In this document: positions 1,074 through 22,264 of the stretch, piece after piece
Numbering within the stretch: position 1 is the first letter of the stretch
How the letters are laid out: each line of letters begins with the position of its first letter
Notes under the pieces: generated by a model
Database searches by the model: none
What the model saw: only the letters and a program-made list of their open reading frames with translations
What the model was told of the DNA's origin: nothing
Made by a program: the position numbers and the translations under genes
Origin: Mesorhizobium silamurunense
GTDB lineage: Bacteria; Pseudomonadota; Alphaproteobacteria; Rhizobiales; Rhizobiaceae
Assembly: GCF_014843825.1 (NCBI RefSeq)
Contig: NZ_JHQR01000050.1
Coordinates: forward strand, 1 to 47,851
Reading direction: 5' to 3'
Length of the DNA stretch: 47,851 nt

Positions 1074-1092
1074 GGGCTGCAACGAGGCGACG

Positions 1093-1659
1093 ATGTCGCG
1101 CGCACTGGACAGAACTGGAATATGGATCGGCTGGGCGTTCTTCGCCGATCTGGCGAACGCCTTGGCGCTGACCTTCGGCTACATGTTCTCCAGACCCGTG
1201 ACCATGCAGTATCCGGACAAGGAAAAATGGTTGCCCTATTCGCGTTACCGCGGGCATCACTTCCTAAAGCGCGACGACGAGGGCGAGATCAAATGCGTAG
1301 CCTGCGAACTCTGCGCGCGGATCTGTCCCTGCGACTGCATCGAGGTCATCCCTTATGAGGACGAGAAGGGCAACCGACACCCGGCAAAATTCGAGATCGA
1401 CATGGCCCGGTGCCTGTTCTGCGGGCTGTGCGAGGACGCCTGTCCGGCGGACGCGATCGCGCTTGGCCAACAGTACGAATTCTCGAGTTTTTCCTCGCGT
1501 GACCTGGTGATCGGGCGTGACGATCTGCTCGGCAAGCCGGGCAAAGCAACGACCGGCGGCGGCGTGGTCGCTGCACGCCTGAACACCGAGCAGGACGTGC
1601 TGGTCGAGACGAGCGAGCCACGGGGGTACAACTGGTGGCGGAATATCCGACGAACGTGA
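1093..1659 (+). CDS. nuoI: NADH-quinone oxidoreductase subunit I (NuoI), 2x[4Fe-4S] ferredoxin-like
   Basis: This peripheral-arm subunit carries clusters N6a and N6b and passes electrons from NuoG towards NuoB. The open frame could begin further upstream inside nuoH, but the ATG at 1093 is preceded by a GAGGCG ribosome site and gives the normal N-terminus (MSRALDRTG), 188 residues. Two complete CxxCxxCxxxCP motifs are visible, CVACELCARICP and CLFCGLCEDACP, as expected for two tetranuclear clusters. The C-terminal tail after about residue 140 is variable and somewhat longer than in E. coli NuoI. It is the second gene of the rightward nuoH-nuoI-CBS unit. Confidence 0.96.
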   Translation: MSRALDRTGIWIGWAFFADLANALALTFGYMFSRPVTMQYPDKEKWLPYSRYRGHHFLKRDDEGEIKCVACELCARICPCDCIEVIPYEDEKGNRHPAKFEIDMARCLFCGLCEDACPADAIALGQQYEFSSFSSRDLVIGRDDLLGKPGKATTGGGVVAARLNTEQDVLVETSEPRGYNWWRNIRRT

Positions 1660-1704: not shown

Positions 1705-2145
1705 ATGCTGGTCTGCCAAATCTTGAGGACCAAGGCTCCCGAGGTCGTCACAGTCACTCCAGGTCAGACGATGGTGGAAGTGCTACGGCTGTTTAGGGAG
1801 AACAACATCGGCTTCGTGGTCGTCAGCCGTTTCCCCGGGCAATGCCTGGGCACGCTGTCGGAGCGCGACTGCTGCAATGCGGTGGCTGAACACGGAACCA
1901 AGGCGCCCATGATGCGGGTCGCCGACATCATGAACCGCAGTGTGGCGACCTGTTCGGCTCAGGATTTGCTGCCCTCGGTGATGGCGACAATGACCAACCG
2001 GCGTACGCGCCATGTGCTGGTCATGGATGGCGACGCTACTGTCGGCGTGGTGAGCATCGGCGACGTGGTCAAGCACCGGCTCGACGAATTGCAGAACAAC
2101 GAGCAGGTGCTGTACGATTACATCGCGGGGACCGGTTATCACTGA
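1705..2145 (+). CDS. CBS-domain pair protein
   Basis: A 146-residue cytoplasmic protein made almost entirely of two CBS domains, roughly residues 5-60 and 75-130. It shows the typical N(N)IGFVVV / G(T)LSERD and RHVLVMDG...GVVSIGDVVK segments. CBS pairs (Bateman modules) usually bind adenine nucleotides or related ligands and act as energy sensors. The gene follows nuoI by 45 bp with a strong AGGAGG ribosome site, so it is probably cotranscribed with nuoH-nuoI. A role in sensing adenylate or NAD(H) status for this complex I is a guess from position. CBS proteins of this size are common in alphaproteobacteria away from nuo genes, so the link could be incidental. Confidence 0.9.
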   Translation: MLVCQILRTKAPEVVTVTPGQTMVEVLRLFRENNIGFVVVSRFPGQCLGTLSERDCCNAVAEHGTKAPMMRVADIMNRSVATCSAQDLLPSVMATMTNRRTRHVLVMDGDATVGVVSIGDVVKHRLDELQNNEQVLYDYIAGTGYH

Positions 2146-2204: not shown

Positions 2205-4793
2205 TCAGCCCAGATTCTCAGGCCGCGCCTCGACCCCGGCGACAGTGGCGATCTCGAAGGCCGCGTGCGCCATTTGAACTTCCACCGGACATGGGTATTC
2301 GCCCCGCCGCATCAGGCTGTTGAGACGCAAGGATTTGTAGTTCTCGGGAACGAACACGAGGCCCCTGGGAAAACGCTTGTTGACCTTGAGCTTCGCCGTC
2401 AGTTCGCCTTGGGCCGATCGCACGACCACCTGATCGCCATCCGCAAGGCCAAGCTGCACTGCATCCCGCGCGCTCATCTCGACATATGGGTCATCCGCGA
2501 CCGTATTCAGGATCTCCGAGCGCTCGGAAAGATATCCGTTGTGGAACAGGCAGTTGCCGGTGACCAGCATGAGCCGGTCGGCTGCAATGGGGGCAGGCGG
2601 GAGGGCGAAGAACTCGCCAACGGGTGGCGCAAGGGCCGCCTTCGTGAAGGCTCCGTCGGCGCCAAGCCCATCCTGCGTCAACCCCTGGTAGGCCGGAACC
2701 AGCCGGGCAATCTCGCCGAAGATTTCGCCTTGGATCGACGGCCGCAACGCCTGCCCGCGAAGCGCTGCAACGAAGTCGAAAATCGACAGATTGTCCCGCG
2801 CCTCGAGCGCGGGTTCGCGGAATTTGCAGACCTTTTGGGCCCGGCCTTCGTTGTTGGTGAACGTGCCGGATTCCTCGCCATAGCTTGCCGCGGGCAGCAC
2901 GACATCCGCCAGGCCCGCCGTATCCGTGAGGAACGCGTCCTGCACGATCAGGAGATCGGCGGCACCAAGCGCCCGCTGCACGAATCCCCGGTCGGGATAG
3001 GACATCACTGGATCGCTTCCGGCGATATAGAGCGCGCCCATTCGCTTCCTGTCGCAGAGTTCCAGCATGGCGTCGAAATCCACGCCCGGTTCAGACGGGA
3101 TTTCGGCGCCCCAGGCCCGTTCGAGAGTTGTGCGCGCCGCATCATCGGCGAGCCCGCGCAGCCCCGGCAGCGCCGTCGGCAGAACGCCCATGTCCCAGGC
3201 GCCCAGTTGGTTGGCACGGTCGAAGAGGAACTGCATCGCCAGGCTCTTACCGAGCGCGCGCACAACCTGCAAAAGGTTGTTGAGTTGCTGCAACGTCGCG
3301 CGCGCCAGGGGCGATCTCAAGAGGTCAGCGCTGACAAGCACGGTGATGGTCCGGCCTTCCAGCAACGCTGCGGCGAGGCGGTCCGGACCGTCACCGCCGG
3401 TGACCGCTGCCGGCCGGCCGGTTGTTGCGCCGATGTCAGCAAAAACGTCGCCCGGCAATGCCTGACCAGCCGCCCCCAGTCCGGTCACCACCGCGGCAAG
3501 GCCCTGAGCCTCGCCGCCCGGCGGCACGCGAACGACCGCCCGCGCATCGGCGTCCAGACGGGATGGCCGCGCCGAGAGCATGAGCAACCTGGTCCGTCGC
3601 CGCCGTGCACAGTCCCGCAGCAAATATTCGGTGACTGGGTTTTCGTCCGTCACGTTGCCACCGACGACGAGCACACAGTCGTTGCCGATCACCTCCTCCA
3701 GCGGTGCGCGGGTGTAGAAGGCGGCCACCAATGGGCCGAGCGTATCAAAGGGCGTGGACCAGCGCGAGGAGCAGTCGATATTGTTGGTCCGGAATGCTGT
3801 CCGCATCAGCTTCTGGAACTGATAAAGCACCTCGTTGGGCAGGCGCGGCGAGGCTAGCCCGCCCGCAGCCTTGCTGGCAACGACCGACAGCCGCCGGCGG
3901 AAGTAGTCCCCCGCTTCGTCCCAGGAAACTGGGACCAGGACCCCGTCACGACGGATCATCGGCCGCTTGATCCGATCCTGACTCCGGACGAAGTCGAGGC
4001 CGAAGCGCCCGCGCACGCAGAGCGTTTCGCGGTTTATGCCATGCTCCACCTTCGAGCGGACCCGCATGAACTCGCCCTTGCGTGTGCCGACGGTCAGTTG
4101 GCAGCCGGTGCCGCAATGCGGGCAGACCGTGTCGGTCTCGACCAGATCCCAGGGCCGCGCCTTGTAGCGATAGGGGAAGCTCATCAGCGCGCCGACCGGG
4201 CAGACCTCGACGCAATTGCCGCATTGATCGCAACTCGCAAGACTGCCCTCGAAGCCAGTGACGGCAGTGTCCATGCCTTTTTCAACGGTGCCCAAGGCGA
4301 CCGCGCCGACGACTTCTTCGCACATCCGGACACAGCGCTGGCACTGGATGCAGCGGTTGACGTTCATGATGATGACCGGGCTGAGACGGATGTCCTCGGA
4401 GTGGAACACACGCTTGGCATCGCGGAACCGGCTTGTACGGGGCCCGTATGCCATCACCATGTCTTGCAACTCGCACTCGCCACCCTTGTCGCAGATCGGG
4501 CAGTCGAGAGGGTGGTTGGCAAGCAGCATGTCGAGCATGGAAGAGCGCGTTTCGTCGATCAGCTGCGTGTTCGTCCGCACCACCATGCCGTCGGTGACCG
4601 CAGTGGCGCAAGAAGGCTGCAGCCGTCGCTGCCCCTCAATCTCCACCAGGCACATGCGGCAGGAGGCCAGCGCCGGCAGCCGCTTCAGATAGCAGAAAGT
4701 CGGGATGTTGATGCCCAAACGCTCGGCGGCCTGGAGCACCGTGGAGCCCGGCTCCACTTCCAGCGTTCGTTCATCGATTGTGACGCGAACCAT
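2205..4793 (-). CDS. nuoG: NADH-quinone oxidoreductase subunit G (NuoG)
   Basis: The large iron-sulfur subunit of the NADH-oxidising arm of complex I. The N-terminus (residues 1-80) is a [2Fe-2S] ferredoxin domain with the SCRMC cysteines. It is followed by the HxxxCxxC-type C-rich segment (CPICDKGGEC), then two [4Fe-4S] motifs (CIQCQRCVRMC near 150, CDQCGNCVEVCP near 190), then a CPHCGTGC motif near 225. The last matches the extra N7-type cluster / molybdopterin-oxidoreductase fold. The rest (about 250-862) is the molybdopterin-type domain. At 862 residues it is close to E. coli-type NuoG and longer than mitochondrial-type alphaproteobacterial NuoG, consistent with an acquired second complex I. 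It is the last gene of the leftward operon. Confidence 0.96.
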   Translation of the reverse strand: MVRVTIDERTLEVEPGSTVLQAAERLGINIPTFCYLKRLPALASCRMCLVEIEGQRRLQPSCATAVTDGMVVRTNTQLIDETRSSMLDMLLANHPLDCPICDKGGECELQDMVMAYGPRTSRFRDAKRVFHSEDIRLSPVIIMNVNRCIQCQRCVRMCEEVVGAVALGTVEKGMDTAVTGFEGSLASCDQCGNCVEVCPVGALMSFPYRYKARPWDLVETDTVCPHCGTGCQLTVGTRKGEFMRVRSKVEHGINRETLCVRGRFGLDFVRSQDRIKRPMIRRDGVLVPVSWDEAGDYFRRRLSVVASKAAGGLASPRLPNEVLYQFQKLMRTAFRTNNIDCSSRWSTPFDTLGPLVAAFYTRAPLEEVIGNDCVLVVGGNVTDENPVTEYLLRDCARRRRTRLLMLSARPSRLDADARAVVRVPPGGEAQGLAAVVTGLGAAGQALPGDVFADIGATTGRPAAVTGGDGPDRLAAALLEGRTITVLVSADLLRSPLARATLQQLNNLLQVVRALGKSLAMQFLFDRANQLGAWDMGVLPTALPGLRGLADDAARTTLERAWGAEIPSEPGVDFDAMLELCDRKRMGALYIAGSDPVMSYPDRGFVQRALGAADLLIVQDAFLTDTAGLADVVLPAASYGEESGTFTNNEGRAQKVCKFREPALEARDNLSIFDFVAALRGQALRPSIQGEIFGEIARLVPAYQGLTQDGLGADGAFTKAALAPPVGEFFALPPAPIAADRLMLVTGNCLFHNGYLSERSEILNTVADDPYVEMSARDAVQLGLADGDQVVVRSAQGELTAKLKVNKRFPRGLVFVPENYKSLRLNSLMRRGEYPCPVEVQMAHAAFEIATVAGVEARPENLG

Positions 4794-4826: not shown

Positions 4827-6092
4827 TCAGTGAAACGGGCACCTCCGCTCTTCGATGTGCGCGACGAATTCATGCTCGAAATGCGCCAGTGCTGCCCGCA
4901 GGCCCATCGCCGCGCCGTCGCCCAGAGCGCAGAACGTGTTGCCGAAAATGCCTTTGCAGAGCGCCTCCAGCTGTTCCAGATCGCCCGGCGCGCCCTGGCC
5001 CGCCTCGACCCGGCGCAGCACTTTCACGACCCAGTTCAGCCCTTCGCGGCAGGGGGTGCACTTGCCGCAGGATTCGTGGTGGAAGAACTCGATGATCCGC
5101 GTGGCGACTTTGACGATGCAGGTCGAGTCGTCGATCACGATCACCCCGGCCGAGCCGAGCATCGAGCCGGCGGCGGCCAGCGAGTCGAAGTCCATCCCCA
5201 CGTCCAGCCCGCGCTCCGGGATCAGCGGCGCCGAGACTCCGCCTGGGATCACTGCCTTGAGCGTGCGCCCCGGCAGCGGCCCGCCGGCATAGTCACAGAC
5301 CAGTTCGCGCAGCGGTATCCCCATCGGCAGCTCGTAAAGGCCCGGTTTCCGCACCTGTCCGCTGAGGCAATAGAGCTTCGGGCCGGGGCTCTTGTCCGGG
5401 CCGATGCCGCGGAACCAGTCGGCCCCTCGCACCACGATATGCGGTACGCAGGCCAGTGTCTCGACATTGTTGATCACGGTCGGGCTGGCGTAGAGCCCTT
5501 CGACCGCCGGAAACGGCGGTTTCAGACGCGGCTGCGCCCGCTTGCCTTCGAGCGAGTCGAGCATCGCGGTCTCCTCGCCGCAGATATAGGCGCCGGCGCC
5601 GCAATGGATGTGCACGACGAAGTTGAAATCCGAGCCCAGGATCCGTGTTCCCAGATAACCCTTCGCATAGGCCTCGGCGATCGCCTGCTCCAGCCGGCAG
5701 ATCGCCAGCGTGTATTCCCCGCGGATGTAGACATAGGCGGTTTCCGCTCCTATCGCGTAGGCGCTGATCGCCATGCCTTCGATCAGTTGGTGCGGGTCAC
5801 GCTCCATGATGATCCGGTCCTTGAAGGTGCCCGGCTCGCCCTCATCGGCGTTGCAGCACAGGTATTTCGGCTTGCCGGCGCGCTTGGGCACGAAGCTCCA
5901 TTTCATGCCCGTAGGGAATCCGGCTCCGCCGCGCCCGCGCAGGTTGGATGTCTTGACGAGGTCGATAATCTCGTCGGGCGTGTGCTCCCGCAGCGCCTTG
6001 GCCAGCGCCCGGTAGCCGCCGCCGGCCTCATAGGTCGCGAGCAGATGGCCGTCCGCCACGTCAACGTTCCTGAGAAGGACCGGTTCGAACAT
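4827..6092 (-). CDS. nuoF: NADH-quinone oxidoreductase subunit F (NuoF)
   Basis: This is the NADH- and FMN-binding subunit of complex I where NADH is oxidised. The frame stays open upstream, but the ATG at 6092, four bases after the nuoE stop, gives the usual N-terminus (MFEPVLLRNV) and has a GGGAG ribosome site inside the end of nuoE; length is 421 residues. The glycine-rich nucleotide-binding segment RGRGGAGFPTGMKW is at about residues 52-65. The N3 [4Fe-4S] motif SCGKCTPC lies near residue 342 with a further Cys about 40 residues on (GNTFC). It lies between nuoE and nuoG in the leftward operon. Confidence 0.97.
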   Translation of the reverse strand: MFEPVLLRNVDVADGHLLATYEAGGGYRALAKALREHTPDEIIDLVKTSNLRGRGGAGFPTGMKWSFVPKRAGKPKYLCCNADEGEPGTFKDRIIMERDPHQLIEGMAISAYAIGAETAYVYIRGEYTLAICRLEQAIAEAYAKGYLGTRILGSDFNFVVHIHCGAGAYICGEETAMLDSLEGKRAQPRLKPPFPAVEGLYASPTVINNVETLACVPHIVVRGADWFRGIGPDKSPGPKLYCLSGQVRKPGLYELPMGIPLRELVCDYAGGPLPGRTLKAVIPGGVSAPLIPERGLDVGMDFDSLAAAGSMLGSAGVIVIDDSTCIVKVATRIIEFFHHESCGKCTPCREGLNWVVKVLRRVEAGQGAPGDLEQLEALCKGIFGNTFCALGDGAAMGLRAALAHFEHEFVAHIEERRCPFH

Positions 6093-6096
6093 GGCG

Positions 6097-6618
6097 CTAT
6101 TCTCCCGGCGGTCCTGCGGCGGCAAGATCGGCGCCAGTCGCCTGCCGTACCGTCGCGCGCAGCCTGTCCAGGAGCGCATCGATCCGCGTGATGTCGAGGT
6201 CGCCGTGATAGTCGTCGCCAACCTGCATCACCGGGGCCATCTCGCAAGCGCCGAGGCATTCGACGGTCGAAAGCGTGAACAGCCCGTCCGGGGTCGTGTC
6301 GCCCTTCTTGATGCCGAGCACCTCCTCCAGGTGCCTCAGCAGCTCATCGGATCGGCGCAGCATGCAGGAGACATTGTCGCAGAGCTGCAGGTGGAAAATG
6401 CCGACCGGCTCGGTATGGAAGAGGGTGTAGAAGGTCGCCAGTTCGTAGACCCAGATGCGCTCGACGCCGAGGATGTCGGCGACCTCTTCCAACACCAGTC
6501 CGGGCAGATGGCCATGTTCCCTCTGTGCGATCAGAAGCGCGGGCATGATCGCCGAGCGCTGATCGGGATATCGCGCCGCCGCCTCTTCGATCTTTTCGCG
6601 CATGGTCATCGCGCCCAA
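6097..6618 (-). CDS. nuoE: NADH-quinone oxidoreductase subunit E (NuoE)
   Basis: This small thioredoxin-like subunit carries the off-path [2Fe-2S] cluster N1a and pairs with NuoF. The 173-residue protein has the four cysteines in the family pattern: CDNVSC near residue 80-85 and CLGAC near 120-124. ATG codons at 6618, 6609 and 6603 are all possible starts; the first lies 7 bases after the nuoD stop. It is followed immediately by nuoF, as in most bacteria. The identification rests on the cysteine pattern and the WVYELATFYTLF-type helix. Confidence 0.96.
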   Translation of the reverse strand: MGAMTMREKIEEAAARYPDQRSAIMPALLIAQREHGHLPGLVLEEVADILGVERIWVYELATFYTLFHTEPVGIFHLQLCDNVSCMLRRSDELLRHLEEVLGIKKGDTTPDGLFTLSTVECLGACEMAPVMQVGDDYHGDLDITRIDALLDRLRATVRQATGADLAAAGPPGE

Positions 6619-6625
6619 ATCCCTG

Positions 6626-7840
6626 CTACTTGTCCACCTCCGCCATCACGGGGTCGAGGCTGCCGAGCACTGCGATCATGTCCGCCAGGTAGCGCGCGTT
6701 GGTGACCCCGAAGAGCGCCTGAAGGTTGACGAACGAGGGTGCCCGGACCTTCATGCGGAACGGTTTTGGCGACCCGTCGCTGATGATGTAGAAGCCGAGC
6801 TCGCCCTTTGGCGCCTCGATCGCCGAGTAGACCTCGCCCTTCGGCACCTTGAAGCCATAGGCCGACAGGTCGAAATGCTGGATCAGCGCCTCCATCGAGC
6901 AGTGCACCCGATCCTTGTCCACCGGGAAGGCGATTGTCGGCATGTCGATCTGGAACGGCCCGTCGGGCATCTGGTCGAGACATTGCTCGATGATCCGGAC
7001 GCTCTCGCGCATTTCCTCGACGCGGCATCGCCAGCGCGCGTAGCAATCGCCTTCATCGCGGGTAATAACGTTGAAAGCTAGCCGGTCATAGATCTCATAG
7101 GGCTCGTCGCGGCGGATGTCCCAGTCGACGCCCGAGGCGCGCAGGTTCGGGCCGCTCAGGCCCAGATCGATGCCGTCCGCGGCAGAGATCACGCCGATCC
7201 CCTGCGTGCGCTTCAGGAACACCCGGTTGTTATCGACCAGCCGTTCATAGTCGCGGATCCGGTTCGGGAAGATGTCGCAGAACTCCCGGATCTTGGGGAA
7301 GAATCCGTCGGGCAGATCCTCACGCACACCGCCGACCCGGCAGAAGGAGGTGTGCATCCGCGCCCCGCTGATCATCTCCAACAGGTCCATGATCATTTCG
7401 CGCTCGCGCATGGCGTAAAGGAGCGCGGTCATCGCGCCCAGGTCCAGCGGGAGTGCGCCGGTGATCAGAAGATGACCGGAGATCCGCGCCAGTTCGGCCA
7501 TCAGCACGCGGATATATTGCGCGCGGATCGGCGCTTCGATGCCCAGGAGCTTCTCCACCGCCAGTGCGAAGGCTAGGTTGTTCGAGGGCGGGCAGAGGTA
7601 GTCGAGCCGGTCGGTCAGCGGGAAGATCTGGGTGTAGGTGAAGCTCTCGGCCAGTTTCTCGGTGCCGCGGTGGAGGTAGCCGATATGCGGGTCCACGCGT
7701 GCGACATATTCGCCGTCCAGCTCGAGGACGAGCCGCAGCACCCCATGCGTGCTGGGATGCTGCGGGCCGAGGTTGAGAAGCACCTCCTTGGTGTGGGGCG
7801 CATCGGCTTCCGGCCAGCTCAGTTCCGTGACTTCGGTCAT
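6626..7840 (-). CDS. nuoD: NADH-quinone oxidoreductase subunit D (NuoD)
   Basis: The 49-kDa-type subunit, homologous to the [NiFe]-hydrogenase large subunit; it forms the quinone site with NuoB. The ATG at 7840 lies one base after the nuoC stop (7842-7844) and gives 404 residues starting MTEVTELSW; the frame is open upstream but only over nuoC. Visible signatures are LGPQHPSTHGVLR near residue 25, the HRGTEKLAE segment near 55, and the C-terminal APSFVNLQAL and DPVMAEVDK end. It is a separate gene here, not fused to nuoC as in E. coli. Confidence 0.97.
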   Translation of the reverse strand: MTEVTELSWPEADAPHTKEVLLNLGPQHPSTHGVLRLVLELDGEYVARVDPHIGYLHRGTEKLAESFTYTQIFPLTDRLDYLCPPSNNLAFALAVEKLLGIEAPIRAQYIRVLMAELARISGHLLITGALPLDLGAMTALLYAMREREMIMDLLEMISGARMHTSFCRVGGVREDLPDGFFPKIREFCDIFPNRIRDYERLVDNNRVFLKRTQGIGVISAADGIDLGLSGPNLRASGVDWDIRRDEPYEIYDRLAFNVITRDEGDCYARWRCRVEEMRESVRIIEQCLDQMPDGPFQIDMPTIAFPVDKDRVHCSMEALIQHFDLSAYGFKVPKGEVYSAIEAPKGELGFYIISDGSPKPFRMKVRAPSFVNLQALFGVTNARYLADMIAVLGSLDPVMAEVDK

Positions 7841-7841
7841 C

Positions 7842-8405
7842 TCAAGTCCCCGGTGTGGAACGGCCTCCCTGTGGAATGTCCTCGGTGGCAAGGTCGGGCT
7901 GCGTCGGCGGCGGGCCTTCGGCGCCAAACGGGTTCAGCTTGTCCTTGTAGCCCCGCAGCGGAAAGTCCTTGCGCTGCGGGAAGCCCTCGAACCCTTCCCA
8001 CATATAGATCCGGCGCAGGTCGGGGTGGCCCTCGAACCTGATCCCGTACATGTCCCAGGTCTCGCGCTCATGCCAATTGGCGGTGCGCCAGACCCCCGTC
8101 ACCGACGGGACCCGCGGCGGATCGCCGAGGCGGCACTTGATCCGCACGCGCCATTTGTTCGGCAGCGAACAGAGGTGGTACACCGCCTCGTAGCGCGGCA
8201 TCTCGGGGTAGTGATCGACCCCACAGATGTCGGACAGGAAATCGAACCGCAGCGCCGGGTGTTCCTTTAGGAACCGGCAAAGCTCGACGATCCTGTCAGG
8301 CGAAGCGGCGAAAGCGTGAACCCCATGCGAGAAGCCGAGCTCCTCGATTGCCTCCCCGAAACGTTCCGCGATCAGGGCGCGGATGAGGGACGTCTCCGCG
8401 CTCAT
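7842..8405 (-). CDS. nuoC: NADH-quinone oxidoreductase subunit C (NuoC)
   Basis: The 30-kDa-type peripheral subunit that helps hold NuoD on the membrane arm. The ATG at 8405 overlaps the nuoB TGA (ATGA), so it is translationally coupled; it gives 187 residues starting MSAETSL. The signature block is present: [20 protein letters not shown] with [10 protein letters not shown], followed by a C-terminal PLRGY. The frame remains open upstream through nuoB, but that extension is a shadow. The C-terminal 25 residues after DKLNPFG are low-complexity and variable. Confidence 0.96.
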
Positions 8406-8905
8406 GGCACCGCAACCCGATCCAGGGGTGTCCCGGCCAGCGCCCTGGATTTCTTGATCTTCTCCTGAAGCAGAAGGAAGCCGTGCATCAGCGCCTCGGG
8501 CCGAGGTGGGCAGCCCGGCACATGCACGTCCACCGGCACGAAGGTCTCCGCCCCTTGCACCACGGCGTAGGTGTTGTAGACCCCGCCCGAGATGGCACAG
8601 GTGCCCATGGCGATGACCCAGCGCGGCTCCGGCATCTGGTCGTAGAGCCGGCGCACCACGGGCGCGAATTTCCGCGTTATGGTGCCGGCGATGATCATTA
8701 CGTCGGACTGCCGCGGCGAAGGCCGGAACACCACGCCGAAGCGGTCGAGATCGTAACGGGCACACCCCGCCGAGATCATCTCGATGGCGCAGCAGGCGAT
8801 GCCGAAGGTTTCGGGCCACAGCGCCGATCTTCGGCTCCAGCTGATCAGGCTGTCGGCCGTGGTGAACAGCACGCTGTCGCGGATCGCGTTGTTTACGCCT
8901 CCCAT
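8402..8905 (-). CDS. nuoB: NADH-quinone oxidoreductase subunit B (NuoB)
   Basis: This subunit carries cluster N2, the last electron donor to quinone. The ATG at 8905 gives 167 residues ([10 protein letters not shown]) and overlaps the end of nuoA by 13 bases. The cysteine set is complete: the adjacent Cys-Cys in ACCAIEM near residue 39, GTCAISGG near 100, and [11 protein letters not shown] near 130. A longer frame reaching back into nuoA is not credible because the normal N-terminus is at 8905. It is followed by nuoC through an ATGA overlap. Confidence 0.97.
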
Positions 8906-9258
8906 TCCAGCGCCCCCTTCAGCCAGGCGTAGGCGAAGCCCACGAGAAGCAGCAAAATGAAGACGAACATCTCGACATAGCCGACCGGCCCGATCTCTTT
9001 CAGGACAACGGCCCAGGGAAAGAGGAACATCGTCTCGACATCGAAGACGACAAACAGGATCGCGAGGATGAAGAACTGCACCCTGAAGCGGCCTCCGGCA
9101 GCTTCGCCCGCCGGGTCCATGCCGCACTCATATGGCATGTTCTTCGCGGGATAAGGATTGGACGGGCGCAGTAGCGAGGAAACAAAAAGCGTAACCATCG
9201 CCACCAGGACAATTCCGGCGACCATGAAAAGAACCGGCAGGAACTCCATTCCGGTCAC
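8893..9258 (-). CDS. nuoA: NADH-quinone oxidoreductase subunit A (NuoA)
   Basis: A small membrane subunit near the quinone-binding region. It has 121 residues with three hydrophobic helices, the PYECGMDP loop near residue 43, and the [15 protein letters not shown] block near 70. The start is uncertain: a GTG at 9258 gives MTGMEFLP, while the ATG at 9249 gives MEFLP; neither has a strong ribosome site. It lies 154 bases downstream of nuoN, the largest gap in the leftward operon. Confidence 0.95.
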
Positions 9259-9412: not shown

Positions 9413-10852
9413 TCAGCCGCCAATTGCGGCATGTTGAGCAAGCTTCAGAAACCACGCCGGAAACAGGCCGATGCCGATGGTGCCGGCAGCGGTGAAGGCG
9501 AGTGTGGCGCGGAGCGCGGGCGTCAGCGCCGGATCGAACGCGCCCTCCGGCTCGCGCATGTAGATCACCATCACGATGCGGATGTAGAAGTAGGCGGCAA
9601 CGGCGCTCAGCAGCACTGCGATCACCGCCAGCATGACGAAACCCCGCTCGACGAGCGCGACCAGCACGTAGAACTTGGCGAAGAACCCGGCTGTCGGCGG
9701 AATGCCGGCCAACGAGAACAGATAAAGCAGCATCAGAAGCGCCAGCCCGCGATGCGACTTGGCAAAGCCAGCATAGTTCTCGATGACCTCGCCCGAGAAA
9801 TCGCCGTTCCGCATCATGATGACGATGCCGAAGATGCCGAGATTCATGAACGCATAGATCAGCAAATAGAGCATCACGCTGGCGACCCCGTCCGCACCGC
9901 CGGCCGCCACGCCGAACATGGCGAACCCGGCGTGGGCGATGCTGGAATAGGCCAAGAGGCGCTTGAAATTGTCCTGCACCAGCGCCACGAAACTACCGAG
10001 CGCCATCGTCACTGCTGCAATGACCGCAACGATGATCCAGACGTTCGAGGCCGCGACCAGTGGGTTGAGGAACACCCGCAGGATCACAGCGAACCCCGCT
10101 GCCTTGGGCCCAACCGACATGAAGGCGGTGATCGTCGTCGGCGCGCCTTCATAGACGTCCGGCACCCACATGTGGAACGGCACCGCGCCGACCTTGAATA
10201 CCAGCCCCGCGACGATAAAGACCACAGCCAGGAGCAATCCGGGATCGAGCGGATCACCGGTCACCGCCGCAGCCATCCTGTCCAACTGCGTCGTGCCGGT
10301 GAGCCCGTAGATCAGCGAAACGCCGTAAAGGAAAATCCCGGTCGAGACCCCGCCGAGGATCACGTATTTCAGCGCCGCTTCGTTCGACCGCTGCTGCTGC
10401 CGCAGGAAGCCGGTCAGCACATAGGTGCAGAGCACCGTCAGTTCGAGACCTACATAGATCGACAGGAGGTCGGTCGCTGAGGCCATGATCATCATTCCCG
10501 AGAGCGCCAGGAGCAGCAGTACAAAGTATTCACTGCTCCCGATCCCTTCGATCTCGGCATATTTTCGCGAAAGAAGGAATGTCAGAACTGTGACCAGGTA
10601 GAACACGACCTTGAAGAAGACCGCGAAGCGGTCGGCGACGAACATGCCCGAGTAGGCCGGCCGCACCTCGCCCGCCAGCATGAGCGTCCCCAAGGCGGCA
10701 ATCAGCACGACCGCGACTGAAGCCCAGACAAGGAAATGTTGCTGCCCCTTCCGCACCAACTGCCCCAGGATCAGCAGGATACAGGCCCCGGTAACCACGA
10801 CGATCTCTGGCAGGCTCGCCAGAATCGACTGGAAAAGCGCGGCGGCGGTCAT
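9413..10852 (-). CDS. nuoN: NADH-quinone oxidoreductase subunit N (NuoN)
   Basis: An antiporter-like proton-pumping subunit next to NuoA/J/K in the membrane arm. The 479-residue protein has about 14 hydrophobic segments. The conserved TM5 Glu is E137 (YVGLELTV), the TM7 Lys is K220 (LVFKVGAVPFH), and the VPDVYEGAPT and MSVGPKAAGF motifs follow. The ATG overlaps the nuoM TGA (ATGA), indicating coupled translation. After its stop, 154 bp of non-coding sequence separate it from nuoA. Confidence 0.96.
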   Translation of the reverse strand: MTAAALFQSILASLPEIVVVTGACILLILGQLVRKGQQHFLVWASVAVVLIAALGTLMLAGEVRPAYSGMFVADRFAVFFKVVFYLVTVLTFLLSRKYAEIEGIGSSEYFVLLLLALSGMMIMASATDLLSIYVGLELTVLCTYVLTGFLRQQQRSNEAALKYVILGGVSTGIFLYGVSLIYGLTGTTQLDRMAAAVTGDPLDPGLLLAVVFIVAGLVFKVGAVPFHMWVPDVYEGAPTTITAFMSVGPKAAGFAVILRVFLNPLVAASNVWIIVAVIAAVTMALGSFVALVQDNFKRLLAYSSIAHAGFAMFGVAAGGADGVASVMLYLLIYAFMNLGIFGIVIMMRNGDFSGEVIENYAGFAKSHRGLALLMLLYLFSLAGIPPTAGFFAKFYVLVALVERGFVMLAVIAVLLSAVAAYFYIRIVMVIYMREPEGAFDPALTPALRATLAFTAAGTIGIGLFPAWFLKLAQHAAIGG

Positions 10853-12324
10853 TGGGCGCCCCCCTTACCCTGCACCTGCGCCAGTAGATGCTTCACCGAG
10901 GCGTCGATGATTTCGAGAAAGGGCTTCGGATAGAGCCCGATCCAAAGAACGAAGACGGCTAGCGGCAGGATCGCCGCCATTTCGCGGGCGTTCACGTCGC
11001 GGATCTTGAACCGCATGCCGATGCTGGCCGGTCCAAGCGCGACTTTCCTATACATGCCAAGCAGATAGGCCGCTCCCAGCAAGGCGCCCAGAACGGCAGC
11101 GGCACCGACAGCCAGGTTGGCTGCGAACGCGCCCGACAGCACCAGCAACTCGCCCACGAACGAATTCGTTCCCGGCAGCGCCATCGACGACAGGGCAAAC
11201 AGTGCAAGAAACGCTGTATAGACCGGCGCCGCCTTCATCAGCCCGCCATAATCCGCGATGCTGCGGGTATGGGTCCGCTCGTAGATAAGGCCCACGGACA
11301 GGAACAACGCGCCGGTCGTCACGCCATGATTGAACATCTGCAGGATGCCGCCCTCGAGCCCACGCAGGTTGAGAGTGAAAATCCCCAGCGTCACCAAGCC
11401 CATGTGGCTGATGCTGGAATAGGCCACCAGCTTCTTCAGGTCGTCCTGCGCCAAGGCGAGCAACCCGCCATAGACGATGGCAACCGCCGAAAGGACCAGC
11501 ATCAGCGTCGAATAGTGCACCGTCGCCTCGGGCAGCATTGGCAGCGAGAACCGCAGGAACCCGTAGGCACCCATCTTCAGGAGCACGGCGGCGAGGATGA
11601 TGCTGCCGGCCGTCGGCGCCTGCACATGGGCATCCGGCAGCCAGGTATGGACCGGGACCATCGGCACCTTGACCGCGAAGGCGATCAGAAAGGCGAAGAA
11701 CAGCCATGACTGGACCTGGAACGGCAAATCATGCGCCATCAGGGTGCGGATATCGAAGGTCTCGCCACCGTGGAGATAGAGCACGATGACGCCGATCAGG
11801 AACATCAGGCTGCCCGCCAGCGTGTAGAGGAAGAACTTGAACGCTGCATAGACCCGGCCGTCGCCACCCCAGACGCCGATGATCACATACATCGGAATCA
11901 GCATCGCCTCCCAGAAGACGTAGAACAGGAACAGGTCCAGCGCGCAGAACACACCCAGCATCAGCGCCTGCATGGCCAGCAGGCTGACCATGAACTCCTT
12001 CACCTTGCGGTCGATCGCGACCCACGAGGCGAGCACGCAGATCCAGCCCAAAAGCGCGGTCAGGAACACGAAGAGTGCGCTGATTCCGTCGACGCCAAGT
12101 GTGTAAGTGATCCCCAGCGCGGGCACCCACGGGTGCGTCTCGGTGAATTGCATCTCGTGGGTAGAGGTGTCGAAGCCGCCCAGCATGGCGATGCAAAGCG
12201 CGAAGTCGAGGATAGTGACAGCCAGTGCTATCCATCGCACCGCATCGTCGTTGCGGATAAACATCAGCGCCGCCGCCCCGACGGCTGGCGTGAAGACGAT
12301 GAGGCTAAGCAGAGGGACCGCCAT
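10849..12324 (-). CDS. nuoM: NADH-quinone oxidoreductase subunit M (NuoM)
   Basis: An antiporter-like proton-pumping subunit. The ATG at 12324, with an AGGGGG ribosome site about 6 bases upstream inside the preceding gene's end, gives 491 residues (MAVPLLSLIV); an upstream GTG at 12342 is less likely. Key residues are present: TM5 E139 (FYVFWEAMLIP), TM7 K219 (AVKVPMVPVHTWLPDAH), TM8 K250, and a glutamate in the late helix (GLIYERTHTR). It overlaps the preceding antiporter-like gene and, by ATGA, nuoN. Confidence 0.96.
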   Translation of the reverse strand: MAVPLLSLIVFTPAVGAAALMFIRNDDAVRWIALAVTILDFALCIAMLGGFDTSTHEMQFTETHPWVPALGITYTLGVDGISALFVFLTALLGWICVLASWVAIDRKVKEFMVSLLAMQALMLGVFCALDLFLFYVFWEAMLIPMYVIIGVWGGDGRVYAAFKFFLYTLAGSLMFLIGVIVLYLHGGETFDIRTLMAHDLPFQVQSWLFFAFLIAFAVKVPMVPVHTWLPDAHVQAPTAGSIILAAVLLKMGAYGFLRFSLPMLPEATVHYSTLMLVLSAVAIVYGGLLALAQDDLKKLVAYSSISHMGLVTLGIFTLNLRGLEGGILQMFNHGVTTGALFLSVGLIYERTHTRSIADYGGLMKAAPVYTAFLALFALSSMALPGTNSFVGELLVLSGAFAANLAVGAAAVLGALLGAAYLLGMYRKVALGPASIGMRFKIRDVNAREMAAILPLAVFVLWIGLYPKPFLEIIDASVKHLLAQVQGKGGAQ

Positions 12325-12332
12325 GGCGCCCC

Positions 12333-14093
12333 CTACTGCCACGCCACAGCGAATACGGCGATGGCCGCGATCACACCGGCGATCATAGCCAGCGCGTAGT
12401 GGGTCACGACGCCGGTCTGGAGCCGCCGCAACGCTCCGCCGCCGGCCAGGATCGTGCGAGCGACGGCGTTCACGAAGGCGTCCACGCCGTGCAGATCGAT
12501 CCGCAGTCCTGCCCGTGCCATCCCGTGCAGAAAGGGCAGCGCCGCGGTCTCGGACACGTCACTCACCGCCTTCTCGTAGCGCGCCAATGGTTTTTCGGCG
12601 AGCCACATGAAGCGCCGCGCGCCCATGCGGTAGAACCAGTCGGTATCGATGCTGATCGTATTCTCGGGGTCGAGCGCCCTGAGGAAGATGACGAAGCCCA
12701 AGGCGGTGAACATCAGCACGCCAAGGCTCTCTGTGACATGGACGCCGGTGTAGGGTTCGAAGTCGACCGGGTAGGGCAGAAGCGCGTAGAGCGTCTGGGG
12801 GAACACTCCGATCGCAATGCAGAGCACGGCTGCCATGCCCATCGCAACCAGCATGTTGCGCGGCGGTTCTCGCGCTTCCAGCCCTTGGTCCGTGCCGAAG
12901 AACATGTAGTACGGGAGCTTGAGCCCGGTGTGCAGGAACGTCCCCGATGACGCCATTGTCAGCGCCAGCACCACCAGCGCGCGATGATCCTGTCCGGCGG
13001 CAGCCACCACCATCGACTTGGTGACGAAGCCTGATAAGAACGGGAATGCCGAGATCGCAAAGGCGCCAACCATGTAGAGCGCAAGGGTTACCGGCAGGGT
13101 TTTGTAGAGCCCTCCGAGTTCGGTGAGCTTGCGCCGCCCGGTGACGTGGATCACCGCCCCCGCGCCCATGAAGAGGAGCGCCTTGTAGAGGATATGCGCG
13201 AAGGCATGGCTGACGGCGCCGTTCACCGCCATCTCGGTCCCGATGCCGATGCCCGCCACCATGTAGCCCACCTGGCTGACGATGTGATAGGCCAGGAGCC
13301 GCCGACAATCGTTCTCCAGCACCGCGTAGATAACGCCGTAAAGCGCCATCACTGTGCCGAGCCAGACAAGAAGATCGGTCCCCGGAAACGCCCGCGCCAG
13401 CACATAGACGGCGGTCTTCGTGGTGAAGGCGCTCATGAACACGGCCCCGGTGACGGTCGCTTCCGGGTAGGCGTCGGTCAGCCAGGCGTTGAGTGGCGGC
13501 ACCGCGGCGTTGAGCAGGAACCCGGCAAGGATCAGGCCGGTGGCGAAGCCCAGCCCGCCCTCGATCGGGCCGAAGAGCAGCGAACCGGTGGCGAACCCAT
13601 GGAGAATGATGCCGCCGAGCAGGGCAACGCTGCCGGTGATATGGACCATGAGGTAGCGGAACCCTGCGCGGAGTGCCTGATCGCTGCGCTGGGCAAAGAC
13701 CAGGTAGGCAGAGGCAAACGTCATACCCTCCCAGAACAGGAACAGGGTCAGGTAGTCGCCGGCGAACACCACTCCGAGCGCGCTGCCGACGTAGACGAAC
13801 GCCGCGACATGCTGTCCTGCGTGCGTCAGATGCAAGGCATAGACCATGCCGATCAATGCCATGATGCTGAAAACGGTGGCGAAGAGGATGCTTAGCTTGT
13901 CGACCTTCGCCATCATGATTTCCTGCCCAATGAACCGCGCCGCGCCGTAGCCGCCAGGATGCATCGTCAGCACGGCCAGGATCGCCAGCGTTGGGATCAG
14001 CAGCACATAGGCCTTGCGGACAGGCCCTTTCAGGAAGGGGATCGGAAGAGCGCCGAGAATGAACAGCAGGCCGGGATGGACGAAGTCAGTCAT
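12333..14093 (-). CDS. NuoL/MrpD-like antiporter subunit of complex I (second copy, with C-terminal extension)
   Basis: A 586-residue protein of the NuoL/M/N-MrpA/D antiporter family with roughly 14-16 hydrophobic segments. TM5 Glu is kept (E122, LFWEGMTF) and the TM8 Lys is kept (K226, AFTTKTAVY). At the TM7 Lys position, however, the protein has Asn195 (GFLLNAAVPPLNAWL). After about residue 480 it carries a roughly 80-residue amphipathic stretch and a final hydrophobic helix ending FAVAWQ. This recalls the lateral helix and anchor helix of NuoL, so it probably takes the distal NuoL position. The first bases overlap the end of the 84-residue gene by 8 bp. Databases often label such genes Na+/H+ antiporter subunit D; being inside a complete nuo operon argues for a complex I subunit. 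A canonical NuoL is otherwise absent. Confidence 0.85.
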   Translation of the reverse strand: MTDFVHPGLLFILGALPIPFLKGPVRKAYVLLIPTLAILAVLTMHPGGYGAARFIGQEIMMAKVDKLSILFATVFSIMALIGMVYALHLTHAGQHVAAFVYVGSALGVVFAGDYLTLFLFWEGMTFASAYLVFAQRSDQALRAGFRYLMVHITGSVALLGGIILHGFATGSLLFGPIEGGLGFATGLILAGFLLNAAVPPLNAWLTDAYPEATVTGAVFMSAFTTKTAVYVLARAFPGTDLLVWLGTVMALYGVIYAVLENDCRRLLAYHIVSQVGYMVAGIGIGTEMAVNGAVSHAFAHILYKALLFMGAGAVIHVTGRRKLTELGGLYKTLPVTLALYMVGAFAISAFPFLSGFVTKSMVVAAAGQDHRALVVLALTMASSGTFLHTGLKLPYYMFFGTDQGLEAREPPRNMLVAMGMAAVLCIAIGVFPQTLYALLPYPVDFEPYTGVHVTESLGVLMFTALGFVIFLRALDPENTISIDTDWFYRMGARRFMWLAEKPLARYEKAVSDVSETAALPFLHGMARAGLRIDLHGVDAFVNAVARTILAGGGALRRLQTGVVTHYALAMIAGVIAAIAVFAVAWQ

Positions 14094-14340
14094 AATAGCC
14101 CTCGCGTCGCATCAGCCCGCATTGATGGCCAAGAAACTTGGACACGAAGATTAGAAGCACGCAGGAGCCGAAGCCGTAGAGGGCAGACCAGCCAGGCAGC
14201 CGCTCCCACAGGTATTCAGCGTGTTCGCGGAAGACCAGAACGTCGGCGATAACGATCAGGCCGAGCACCAGATAGAATAGCCGGCGACGCTTTCTCGCAT
14301 GTCTCTCATCGCCAAAGAAATCGACGACACGCTTGATCAT
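14086..14340 (-). CDS. Small two-helix membrane protein within the complex I operon
   Basis: An 84-residue protein with a basic N-terminus (MIKRVVDFFGDERHARKRRR) and two hydrophobic helices at about 22-38 and 55-70. The C-terminal end contains a single Cys (GHQC) and an RREGYYD tail. The ATG overlaps the stop of the upstream antiporter-like gene (ATGA), and its own stop overlaps the start of the next one, so it is translationally coupled on both sides. It matches no complex I core subunit that I know. The tight coupling and position suggest a small accessory subunit or assembly factor of the extended membrane arm. This is inference only. Confidence 0.75.
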   Translation of the reverse strand: MIKRVVDFFGDERHARKRRRLFYLVLGLIVIADVLVFREHAEYLWERLPGWSALYGFGSCVLLIFVSKFLGHQCGLMRREGYYD

Positions 14341-15791
14341 CTGACGACTCTTTCCGCCAGGGCGAGGAAATAGTCCGGGAAGATGCCCATCGCCACCGAC
14401 AGGATGGCGGTCGCGACCAGCGGGATCGTCAACATCGGAATTTCACGAACGGTCGCCGGGCTCTCCTGCGCCTCCGTCCCGAAGAAGGCGGCATAGCTGA
14501 CCGGGAGGAAATAGGCGGCGTTCAAGACCGAACTTATCAGGAGCACGATAAGGAACGGGGTCTCCCCGGCCTCCACCGAGCCGAGCGCCAGATACCACTT
14601 GCTGATGAAGCCCGCAGCCGGTGGCACCCCGATCATGCTGAGCGAGCCGACGAAGAACGCTCCCATTGTCCAGGGCAGCCTGCGGCCGATGCCGGCCATG
14701 TCGCTGATGTTGCGCTTGCCGGACGCGCAATAGATCGAGCCGGCGCAGAAAAAGAGCGTGATCTTCGAGAATGCATGCGCCGCGATGTGGATGATCCCGC
14801 CGACCATCGCGACGGGCGACAGCAGAACCGCGCCCAGCACGATGTAGGAGAGCTGGCTGACCGTCGAATAGGCGAGCCGCGCCTTCAGGTCGTCCCGCGT
14901 CAGGGCGTAGATGGACGCCATCAGGATCGTGAACGAGACCACATAGGCCGTGGCGATGCCGAGCCCCAGCCCGCCCACCAGCCCTGCGCCGAAGACATGG
15001 AACACCACGCGCAGCACGCAGAACACACCCATCTTGACGACGGCCACCGCATGCAAGAGCGCACTAACCGGCGTCGGCGCCACCATCGCAGCCGGCAGCC
15101 AGGCGTGCATCGGCATCACCGCGGCCTTGGCGAAGCCGAAGAGATAGCAGAAATAGACGACGGTCAGCAGCGGCGCCGACGCGTCGACCCCCGCCAGCAG
15201 CCCCCCCGGCACAAAGTCGAGTGACCCCGCAATGCTGTAAGTCAACGCCAGCGCGGCCAGAAGCACGCTTTTCGACGCTCCCATCAAATAGACGAGGTAT
15301 TTGCGGCTGCCCGCCCATCCCTCCTCGTCCTCATGGTGGTAGACAAGCGGATAGGTAACGAGGCTCAGCGCCTCGTAGAAGATCACCAACGTGAACAGAT
15401 TGGCGGCAAAGGCGCCCCCGGCGGCGGCCGCGAGGCTGGCGGCGAAGCAGGCGAAGAACCGGGTCTGCGCATGCTCATTCAAGTGCCGCATGTAGCCGAT
15501 GGAATAGATCGACGCCACGATCCACAACAGCGACGATACGGTGGCAAAGACCATGCCGAGCGCATCGACACGGAAAGCGAAGTCGATCCCCGGCAGAATC
15601 TCGAACAGGCGCAAATCGACTGTCCCGCCCGCCAGCACCGTGGGCGCCATCGAGGCGACAATTGCGAACATGGCGATCGCGGCCAACGGCGAGACGGCAT
15701 CGCGAAGTTTCTCGCGTTTGTTCAGAAGGAGGACTGCCAGGGCCGCCAGAACTGGGACGGCAACGGCAAGCAGCGGCCGGATCGATATCAC
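14337..15791 (-). CDS. NuoL/MrpD-like antiporter subunit of complex I (first copy)
   Basis: A 484-residue polytopic protein of the NuoL/M/N-MrpD family. The functional residues are intact: TM5 E140 (VIFYEALSL), TM7 K222 (GFAKAAVMPMHAWLP), TM8 K253 (AVVKMGV) and a late Lys (HAFSKITLFF). It lacks the C-terminal lateral-helix extension, so it resembles NuoM/MrpD in size more than NuoL. The start is a GTG at 15791 with AAAGGA seven bases upstream, located just after the nuoK TAG. Together with the neighbouring 586-residue subunit, NuoM and NuoN it makes four antiporter-like subunits in one operon. Confidence 0.87.
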   Translation of the reverse strand: MISIRPLLAVAVPVLAALAVLLLNKREKLRDAVSPLAAIAMFAIVASMAPTVLAGGTVDLRLFEILPGIDFAFRVDALGMVFATVSSLLWIVASIYSIGYMRHLNEHAQTRFFACFAASLAAAAGGAFAANLFTLVIFYEALSLVTYPLVYHHEDEEGWAGSRKYLVYLMGASKSVLLAALALTYSIAGSLDFVPGGLLAGVDASAPLLTVVYFCYLFGFAKAAVMPMHAWLPAAMVAPTPVSALLHAVAVVKMGVFCVLRVVFHVFGAGLVGGLGLGIATAYVVSFTILMASIYALTRDDLKARLAYSTVSQLSYIVLGAVLLSPVAMVGGIIHIAAHAFSKITLFFCAGSIYCASGKRNISDMAGIGRRLPWTMGAFFVGSLSMIGVPPAAGFISKWYLALGSVEAGETPFLIVLLISSVLNAAYFLPVSYAAFFGTEAQESPATVREIPMLTIPLVATAILSVAMGIFPDYFLALAERVVR

Positions 15792-15794
15792 CGG

Positions 15795-16100
15795 CTATCC
15801 TTTCATCATGGTCACTTCGTCGACCTTGAGGGTGGACTTGTTCCTCGCCAGGGCGACCAAGATGCCGAGGGCAACGGCAACTTCCGCCGCAGTGATTGCT
15901 ATGACGAAGATTGCAAAAATCTGCCCGCGGTAGTCGTCGTAGTAGTGCCCAAAAGCTATGAAGTTGATGTTGACCGAGTTGAGCAGCAGTTCCAGCGACA
16001 TCAGCACGACCAGGATATTGCGTCTGAGCAGCACGCCCGCCGCACCGATCACGAACAGGACCACTCCGAGCACGATATACCACCAGAGCGGCACCATCAC
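15795..16100 (-). CDS. nuoK: NADH-quinone oxidoreductase subunit K (NuoK)
   Basis: A small three-helix membrane subunit homologous to MrpC. The 101-residue protein has the family features [19 protein letters not shown] with the TM2 glutamate (E37) and the second-helix glutamate in the [11 protein letters not shown] motif (E72). The start is either the GTG at 16100, which overlaps the nuoJ stop (GTGA), or the next codon ATG at 16097. It sits second in the leftward operon. Confidence 0.95.
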
Positions 16101-16597
16101 CGCGGCTCCTTCCGCGCCAGCACGATGGCGCCGATCAGGGCCGCCAGCAGGATGACGGAGGCGACTTCAAACGGCAGGAGATAGTCGGCGAAAAGCGTCG
16201 TGCTGAGTTGCCTGACCTCACCGCCGGTGCGCATTGCGACGGGCTCCGCGACCGAAAAGCGGTCGCTCCTGAGCACCAGTACAAGCATCTCGACCCCAAG
16301 CAGGACCAGCAGCACCAGAACAGGCAGGTTGCTACCCGGCAAGAACCGCTGCAACACCGCTTCGCGTACATCAATCATCATGATCACGAATAGGAACAGG
16401 ACCATGATCGCGCCGACATAGACGAAAATCTGGATAACCGCGAGTAACGGCGCCTCGAGCAAGACGAAGATCGCCGATACCTGCAGGAAACACGCCATCA
16501 GCGCCAACGCGCTGTGAACAGGATTCCGCGCCAGGACCAAGGTCAGGGCCGCGACCACGGACGCCGCAGCGAACAGAAGAAAGAACCCCTGATCCAT
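16097..16597 (-). CDS. nuoJ: NADH-quinone oxidoreductase subunit J (NuoJ)
   Basis: A membrane-arm subunit with five hydrophobic helices. The ATG at 16597 has a GGAGGAG ribosome site about 9 bases upstream and gives 166 residues starting MDQGFFLLF; an in-frame extension to 16627 is not needed. The TM3 region with the pi-bulge is recognisable ([20 protein letters not shown] near residues 55-75). It is the first gene of the leftward complex I operon, so transcription should start in the gap to its right. Confidence 0.95.
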
Positions 16598-16856
16598 CGA
16601 CGCCGCTCCTCCGACGCGAACTGTCACTCGGCGCGACAGGGCCGGACTTGAGATAGCTGTCCACTTCCGTTCACAAATTGTGCCCTAATATCCGATTTTT
16701 CTCAAGATTATCGTGGTTTAGTGCTGCGCTAAACTCACTACTCATATTTGAGAGCGAGGCGCACTTCTCGGAAAAGCCTTGCTGATCCGTGACAGGTTAG
16801 GCTCGGTTGAAGCGGGGCTTTCAGGCGGGACGGAAAGTCCCGAGCGGGAAATGGCT
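16598..16856 (-). promoter_or_regulatory. Upstream region of the complex I operon
   Basis: This 259-bp gap lies between nuoJ and the upstream cyclase gene, both read leftward. It contains an inverted repeat GTTTAG-N7-CTAAAC at 16716-16734, an AT-rich block at about 16681-16715, and the hairpin described separately. The inverted repeat is a candidate operator for the operon. I could not assign clear -35/-10 boxes, and no sigma54 motif or convincing FNR box is visible. Confidence 0.45.
16826..16842 (-). terminator. Possible terminator after the cyclase gene
   Basis: A 6-bp GC-rich stem CGGGAC/GTCCCG with a GGAAA loop lies 14 bases past the stop of the leftward cyclase gene. No clear U-tract follows on the minus strand, so it is only a weak terminator candidate. 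Confidence 0.35.
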
Positions 16857-21971: not shown

Positions 21972-22264
21972 TCGTTCATTTCCATAAGAGGCCCATCGCG
22001 TTTCGGCGCGGTGCCAAAAGAACGAAGGAACGGAGGAGACAGGTCAGGTCCGCTTCGGTACGCCCATCGCAAAAGCGGTTGGCGCTGGAGCCCTACCAAC
22101 ACCTCGGAACCTTTGCCGCGATCCACTCGAACAGCCCGACGCTAAGTCGCGCCTGAACGCGCAACCCTTTGTCGTGCCGTTCGCACTCTCACTGGCGGCG
22201 TTGATTGCCGTCTCACGCCCGGATCAAGGAATCCGCGGCTCAAACCTGGTGGAGGCTTATGACG

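What the first reader, a model, noticed from the sequence alone, without database searches (positions are those of the whole stretch)
9413..15791. Complex I operon with four antiporter-like subunits instead of three
The operon encodes NuoM, NuoN and two further NuoL/MrpD-like subunits (484 and 586 residues), while no separate standard NuoL is present. This is seen directly. Established knowledge: modified complex I cassettes with a fourth antiporter-like pump have been described and proposed to move an extra proton (Chadwick and colleagues). Inference: this enzyme may have a longer membrane arm and a different H+/e- ratio, possibly suited to low-driving-force use or reverse electron transport next to an NADH-consuming monooxygenase.
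Basis: partly seen in the sequence, partly recalled or inferred. Interest (0 to 1): 0.7.

Follow-up and report, generated by a model that had tools for sequence, protein, structure and literature searches.

The report
Complex I with four antiporter subunits
This rhizobium-like bacterium's second respiratory complex I operon lacks the usual NuoL gene and carries in its place two antiporter-type pump genes with a small gene between them, so the enzyme would likely have a longer membrane arm with four pumps in a row; the kind is already known from rhizobia, but the pump predicted to sit outermost lacks a lysine that every other kind of pump subunit compared here has.

Summary
The operon encodes NuoM, NuoN and two more antiporter-like subunits (484 and 586 aa), no NuoL; a standard nuo operon with NuoL lies elsewhere in the genome. 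The kind is known: rhizobial "green complex I"; in all 80 related loci fetched the 586-aa gene runs into nuoM-nuoN. (2) The lateral-helix segment grows with pump number: 21 residues in MrpA (18 of 18), 49 in alphaproteobacterial NuoL (30 of 30), 73 in the operon's 586-aa subunit (86 of 86 rows, about 83 distinct), 54 in most free-standing relatives. This supports four pumps in one complex. (3) The 586-aa subunit has Asn for the helix-7 lysine that 62 of 62 other antiporter subunits keep, so a fifth pumped proton is open; the Asn also occurs in free-standing relatives. (4) The genome has no MrpB or MrpE match, which speaks against a separate Mrp antiporter. The neighbouring monooxygenase is absent from the 80 related loci. 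Assembly and stoichiometry are untested.

The parts
14337..15791 (-). 484-aa antiporter-like subunit (MrpD-like, 'Y484'); has the canonical Glu (TM5), Lys (TM7), His and Lys (TM8) and Lys (TM12); no lateral helix; likely the added pump
14086..14340 (-). 84-aa protein ('S84') of a conserved family, no Pfam or NCBIfam match; two membrane helices judged by eye
12333..14093 (-). 586-aa antiporter-like subunit with C-terminal lateral helix ('X586'); likely outermost; Asn195 in place of the TM7 Lys, His151 in TM6
12699..12917 (-). ruler segment of the lateral helix, Tyr488 to Gly561 of the 586-aa subunit (position computed from residue numbers)
10849..12342 (-). nuoM
9413..10852 (-). nuoN
15795..16100 (-). 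nuoK
16097..16627 (-). nuoJ
8893..9258 (-). nuoA
8402..9127 (-). nuoB (longest ORF; the true start is probably inside)
7842..8819 (-). nuoC (longest ORF; the true start is probably inside)
6626..7927 (-). nuoD
6097..6618 (-). nuoE
4827..6221 (-). nuoF
2205..4793 (-). nuoG, with a Molybdop_Fe4S4 (PF04879) match
87..1073 (+). nuoH, convergent to the rest
1057..1659 (+). nuoI, convergent to the rest

Best explanation
The operon encodes a complex I in which a three-gene cassette (484-aa antiporter-like subunit, 84-aa protein, 586-aa antiporter-like subunit with a lateral helix) stands where NuoL should be, so the membrane arm would likely run NuoN-NuoM-484-586, four pump-type subunits held by a strap about one pump longer than in ordinary complex I. 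Shown by sequence: the gene content, the absence of NuoL from the operon, the 73-residue strap segment, the residues kept and lost, and the Mrp kinship of the cassette. Inferred: that the four subunits sit in this order in one enzyme, that the 84-aa protein joins or seals the 484-586 module, and that NADH oxidation drives all four. The 484-aa subunit has the canonical pump residues and is the likely added pump. The 586-aa subunit keeps Glu122, Lys226, His300, Lys304 and Lys359 but has Asn195 for the TM7 lysine, always together with His151 in TM6. I commit to it being a working but differently gated outermost pump, with up to five protons per NADH. My odds for the ratio, given the four-subunit arm: about 0.4 for five protons, 0.35 for four (586 a silent strap-bearing cap), 0.25 for another ion or ratio.
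Against: Asn195 replaces the TM7 lysine that 62 of 62 other antiporter subunits have, and TM7 His at 202 is Asn in 119 of 120 close homologues, so the 586-aa subunit may not pump. Asn195 is not specific to complex I: 25 free-standing loci have it. Both added subunits cluster with Mrp proteins. The model is unsure (pLDDT under 50) in most of the strap. No assembly, structure or stoichiometry was measured.
Confidence: 0.75

Rival explanations
1. The 586-aa subunit is a non-pumping cap and strap: the enzyme has four antiporter folds but three canonical pumps (N, M, 484) and still moves four protons per NADH, like ordinary complex I.
For: TM7 Lys replaced by Asn in all scored nuo-borne rows (85 of 86, one cut) and 120 of 120 close homologues; the Glu-Lys pair is called essential for catalysis in ND4/Nqo13 (PMC9802314 passages).
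Against: TM5 Glu, TM8 Lys, TM11 Lys and TM12 Lys are kept in 240 of 240 proteins, which a silent subunit would not need; free-standing antiporters carry the same Asn; NuoL K229A showed no difference in an Mrp surrogate test (PMC4938563 passages).
Confidence: 0.3
2. The 484-84-586 module moves Na+ or K+ rather than, or besides, protons, as its Mrp ancestry might suggest, and the enzyme exports cations with NADH energy.
For: Both subunits form clades with subunits of Mrp-type clusters, a family known for Na+(K+)/H+ exchange (PMC5703873 passages).
Against: The antiporter subunits MrpE, F, G and B of the donor clusters are not in the operon, and MrpE and MrpB are not in the genome; antiporter-like subunits of complex I of the same fold pump protons (PMC9802314).
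Confidence: 0.12
3. The 484-, 84- and 586-aa proteins form a separate antiporter that merely shares the operon, and the complex uses NuoL from the other operon.
For: A standard NuoL exists elsewhere in the genome; both subunits cluster with free-standing Mrp proteins.
Against: The strap is longer in every nuo-borne row than in the free-standing relatives, on the branch where the gene is found in the nuo operon; no MrpB or MrpE match; the genes stay together in the 80 related loci as far as the contigs reach.
Confidence: 0.07

Closest known systems
[quoted passage not shown] paper not held; known here through passages of PMC9040806, PMC7415380, PMC5419562 and PMC4967309)
   Same: Two MrpD-like subunits replace NuoL, rearranged gene order, second complex I besides a standard one, host group
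   Different: No difference found. The 84-aa subunit, the strap count and the TM7 Asn are not mentioned in the passages read
Complex_I_3 of Ca. Manganitrophaceae (PMC9040806, passages)
   Same: MrpD-like pair most closely related to the rhizobial one
   Different: Five pumps (two NuoM) and 26 more residues in the lateral helix, as reported there; sequences not reached here
2M complex I of Nitrospira (Chadwick et al. 2018; paper not held; known through citing papers)
   Same: A fourth antiporter-like subunit and a lengthened lateral helix
   Different: There the extra subunit is a second NuoM and NuoL is kept; here NuoL is replaced by an Mrp-derived pair
Free-standing Mrp-type clusters with three antiporter genes (L154, L174, L224)
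   Same: The 484-type, 84-type and 586-type genes in the same order
   Different: MrpE, F, G, B and C and a further antiporter gene instead of nuo genes; strap segment about 54 residues
Ordinary complex I (E. coli; the same genome's contig C409)
   Same: NuoA-N soluble and membrane core except NuoL
   Different: NuoL with a 44-49 residue segment and a TM7 lysine

Membership tests
Green complex I | Two MrpD-like subunits in place of NuoL | tested here: met
   definition from PMC9040806
Green complex I | Second complex I besides a standard Nuo14 operon | tested here: met
   C409 carries NuoL, M, N, H and others; definition from PMC7415380
Green complex I | Rearranged gene order | tested here: met
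   nuoJ-K first and nuoH-I convergent; NuoH likewise convergent in 12 of 12 related genomes. The original description of the order was not read
Green complex I | Additional 4Fe4S cluster in NuoG | tested here: inconclusive
   PF04879 Molybdop_Fe4S4 match at residues 219-270; feature from a legend in PMC4967309; cysteine ligands not compared with ordinary NuoG
Green complex I | Upregulation in symbiosis | not testable with these tools
   Reported in PMC7415380
2M complex I | Second NuoM gene with NuoL kept | tested here: not met
   One NuoM, no NuoL in the operon
2M complex I | Lengthened lateral helix | tested here: met
   73 residues against 49 in NuoL
Mrp antiporter | MrpB, MrpE and the other small subunits | tested here: not met
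   No PF01899 or PF04039 match in the genome; MrpF and MrpG not searched
Mrp antiporter | Kinship of the 484- and 586-aa subunits with Mrp-borne subunits | tested here: met
Complex I (proton-pumping NADH:quinone oxidoreductase) | Soluble and membrane core subunits | tested here: met
   NuoA-K, M and N found in the window; NuoL absent
Complex I (proton-pumping NADH:quinone oxidoreductase) | NADH oxidation coupled to proton pumping; H+/2e- ratio | not testable with these tools
   Needs the enzyme

The most novel reading that the evidence does not exclude
Green complex I is a natural four-antiporter enzyme whose outermost, strap-bearing subunit has dropped the Glu-Lys switch that every other kind of pump subunit uses, with a helix-6 histidine in the lysine's place. 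Either the outermost pump is gated in a new way, or protons leave from inner pumps, which would contradict the model in which all protons leave through the distal subunit. Its strap is a molecular ruler that adds 24-28 residues per pump from two pumps to five.
Probability: 0.35. Interest if true: 0.75.

Novelty: new member of a known kind. Interest (0 to 1): 0.5.

Why it matters
Whether each antiporter-like subunit of complex I pumps one proton, or all protons leave through the outermost one, is an open debate (passages of PMC9802314 and PMC11496545). An enzyme with one pump more than usual and an outermost pump without the switch lysine could help to tell the models apart by an H+/NADH measurement against the standard enzyme of the same cell. 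The review PMC7415380 reports that this form is upregulated in nodules of the strains that have it, and that it was proposed to raise the efficiency of nitrogen fixation.

Tried and rejected
Hypothesis that the TM7 Asn arose when the subunit joined complex I: rejected. It is also in 25 free-standing loci and in 120 of 120 proteins of the sister set.

Hypothesis that the strap is too short for four pumps, formed from the statement in PMC9040806 that rhizobia lack the 26-residue insert: rejected by the ruler. That statement compares rhizobia with the five-pump form.

First AlphaFold model (A1, 73 rows) had mean pLDDT 56.7 and was not used. The second (A2, 104 rows) reached 77.3 but is unsure in most of the strap; its matches show the fold only.

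One donor cluster for both pumps: the 586-type tree puts a free-standing Mrp protein (L154) next to the nuo-borne clade (SH-aLRT 100); the 484-type tree leaves the nearest relative open (support 50). All trees are quick ones; L218 and L221 have long branches that meet.

Row choices: the first ruler run picked wrong-frame ORFs for 11 of 31 NuoL and 2 of 18 MrpA rows; these were re-picked by BLAST, and all 31 and 18 rows are counted. L217 is partial. L243, a different complex without a 586-type gene, was left out of the 173 rows. The tree used 10 of the 86 nuo-borne rows; the tree left out five long-branched rows of 82. 'Free-standing' means no nuo soluble subunit matched in the fetched stretch; some stretches are cut at contig ends (the shortest 3.2 kb).

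Papers: only passages were read of PMC9040806, PMC7419157, PMC7415380, PMC8879329, PMC5419562, PMC4938563, PMC9802314, PMC5703873, PMC9568556, PMC11496545, PMC6606698, PMC4967309 and PMC12361115.

Full report
What is there. The window is contig C437 of a 7.04-Mb genome whose 586-aa protein is closest to those of Mesorhizobium. On the minus strand run nuoJ, nuoK, a 484-aa ORF, an 84-aa ORF, a 586-aa ORF, nuoM, nuoN and nuoA to nuoG; nuoH and nuoI are convergent at the left end, followed by a CBS-domain ORF. The genome has nine PF00361 matches: four here, three in a standard nuo operon on C409 (L, M, N), and two on C196 next to a NuoH-like match, which I read as a hydrogenase-4-type cluster.

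Known kind. The two large ORFs pass NCBIfam cut-offs for Mrp-type subunit D families, not for NuoL. In genome contigs 186 stretches matched a pattern, 168 encode a relative of the 586-aa protein, and the best 80 were kept. All 80 have nuoM-nuoN after it; 78 have the 484-type gene and 79 the 84-aa gene before it, the exceptions (L034, L079) being cut at the contig end. NuoH lies beyond nuoG on the opposite strand in 12 of 12 genomes looked at (positions set). This is the rhizobial green complex I, described in PMC9040806 as two MrpD-like subunits replacing NuoL (passages). PMC7415380 reports it as upregulated in symbiosis (passages).

Origin of the cassette. NF009310 was searched in 289 genomes of the class and 398 of the phylum; 63 and 21 of them, own genome included, have a match over the cut-off. 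Fetching the surroundings of these hits and of a few weaker ones gave 93 loci. Six have nuo soluble genes nearby: five with the 586-type gene (L152, L217, L238, L239, L240) and L243, a different complex. The other 87 have none in the stretch held. In three loci scanned with Pfam (L224, L174, L154) the cluster holds MrpE, MrpF, MrpG, MbhD/MbhE, MnhB, MrpC and an antiporter gene before the cassette, and no MrpA was among the ORFs scanned. An ORF lies between the 484-type and 586-type genes in 167 of 167 loci holding both. A member of the 84-aa family was found in 166 of them (E under 0.001 with a profile built on the same loci; L218 missing). In the tree of 77 antiporter-like proteins the 484-type and the 586-type each form one group, Mrp-borne and nuo-borne members together, apart from NuoL, MrpA and MrpD. 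The nuo-borne 586-type proteins form one group, nearest to that of a free-standing Mrp cluster.

The strap. I counted residues from the Tyr at the start of the lateral helix to the Gly before the last membrane helix. MrpA has 21 (18 of 18). NuoL has 49 (30 of 30 alphaproteobacterial, own genome included) and 44 in E. coli. Free-standing 586-type rows have 54 in 69 of 87 (range 17-56, cut rows included) and nuo-borne rows have 73 in 86 of 86. In the two protein sets it is 73 in 120 of 120 and 54 in 119 of 120. The difference from the free relatives shows as one 19-column gap in the strap. PMC9040806 gives 26 further residues for a form with five pumps. A near-constant step per pump is what a strap along the pumps would need. 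It is sequence evidence, not a structure; the strap is judged purely structural in PMC9802314.

The odd residue. Glu of TM5 and Lys of TM7 form the ion pair of the antiporter-like subunits (passages of PMC9802314 and PMC11496545). The 586-aa protein has Asn195 in the lysine's column. In the 82-row alignment all 62 other subunits (NuoL, M, N, MrpA, MrpD, the first antiporter gene of the free clusters, 484-type, hydrogenase-type) have Lys; the 20 rows of 586-type have Asn 13, Lys 5, Ser 1, Arg 1. Over 173 rows of 586-type: nuo-borne Asn 85 and one cut; free-standing Lys 59, Asn 25, Arg 2, Ser 1. Asn goes with TM6 His151 in 110 of 110 rows; Lys goes with Gln 51, His 6, Lys 2. These are few events on the tree, so the pairing may be inheritance. 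Glu122, Lys226, Lys304 and Lys359 are kept in 240 of 240 proteins and His300 in 239. TM7 His at 202 is Asn in 119 of 120 nuo-type proteins and His in 117 of 120 of the sister set. In a surrogate test outside complex I, K229A of NuoL made no difference (PMC4938563), while MrpA-K223 and MrpD-K219 are called extremely important for antiport (PMC5703873). The effect of the loss cannot be told from sequence.

Not a free antiporter. The genome has no MrpE and no MrpB match and no further PF00361 match. MrpF and MrpG were not searched.

The monooxygenase. A Phenol_Hydrox protein is at 22205-23932. It is found in none of the 80 related loci, at least 72 of which hold the full 10-kb flank, so a functional tie is unsupported.

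What is not claimed. Nine paper searches showed no listing that I recognised as reporting the 84-aa family, the TM7 Asn or the strap count for rhizobia; only listings and passages were seen. [quoted passage not shown] Chadwick et al. 2018) were not available and may contain them.

Noticed in passing
window 1705-2145 +: A CBS-domain protein ORF directly follows nuoI on the same strand.
   Followed up: no
window 16857-18779 -; L246 5277-8202: A cyclase-plus-TPR protein lies upstream of nuoJ; on contig C474 of the same genome a 71-residue nuoH-like fragment (65% identity) is followed by an ORF whose start resembles such a cyclase by eye. A match to the window's cyclase was found in only 2 of 80 related loci.
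   Followed up: partly
window 22205-23932 +: Methane/phenol/alkene hydroxylase large subunit (PF02332), absent from the 80 related loci.
   Followed up: partly
L224 3213-10608, L174 9137-16444, L154 1862-9521: Free-standing Mrp-type clusters with three antiporter genes and the 84-aa family, in alpha- and gammaproteobacteria by the names of homologues; they do not fit groups 1-3 as described in the PMC5703873 passages.
   Followed up: partly
L219, L220, L218: 586-type subunits with Arg (L219, L220) or Ser (L218) at the TM7 position; L219 and L220 also have Thr at the TM8 Lys and Met or Ile at the TM12 Lys, L218 has Gln at the TM5 Glu: possible further decay of the third pump.
   Followed up: no
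G000 contig C196 (L245): Two antiporter-like ORFs of 716 and 719 aa (stop to stop) with Glu instead of Lys at the TM12 column, next to a NuoH-like match.
   Followed up: no
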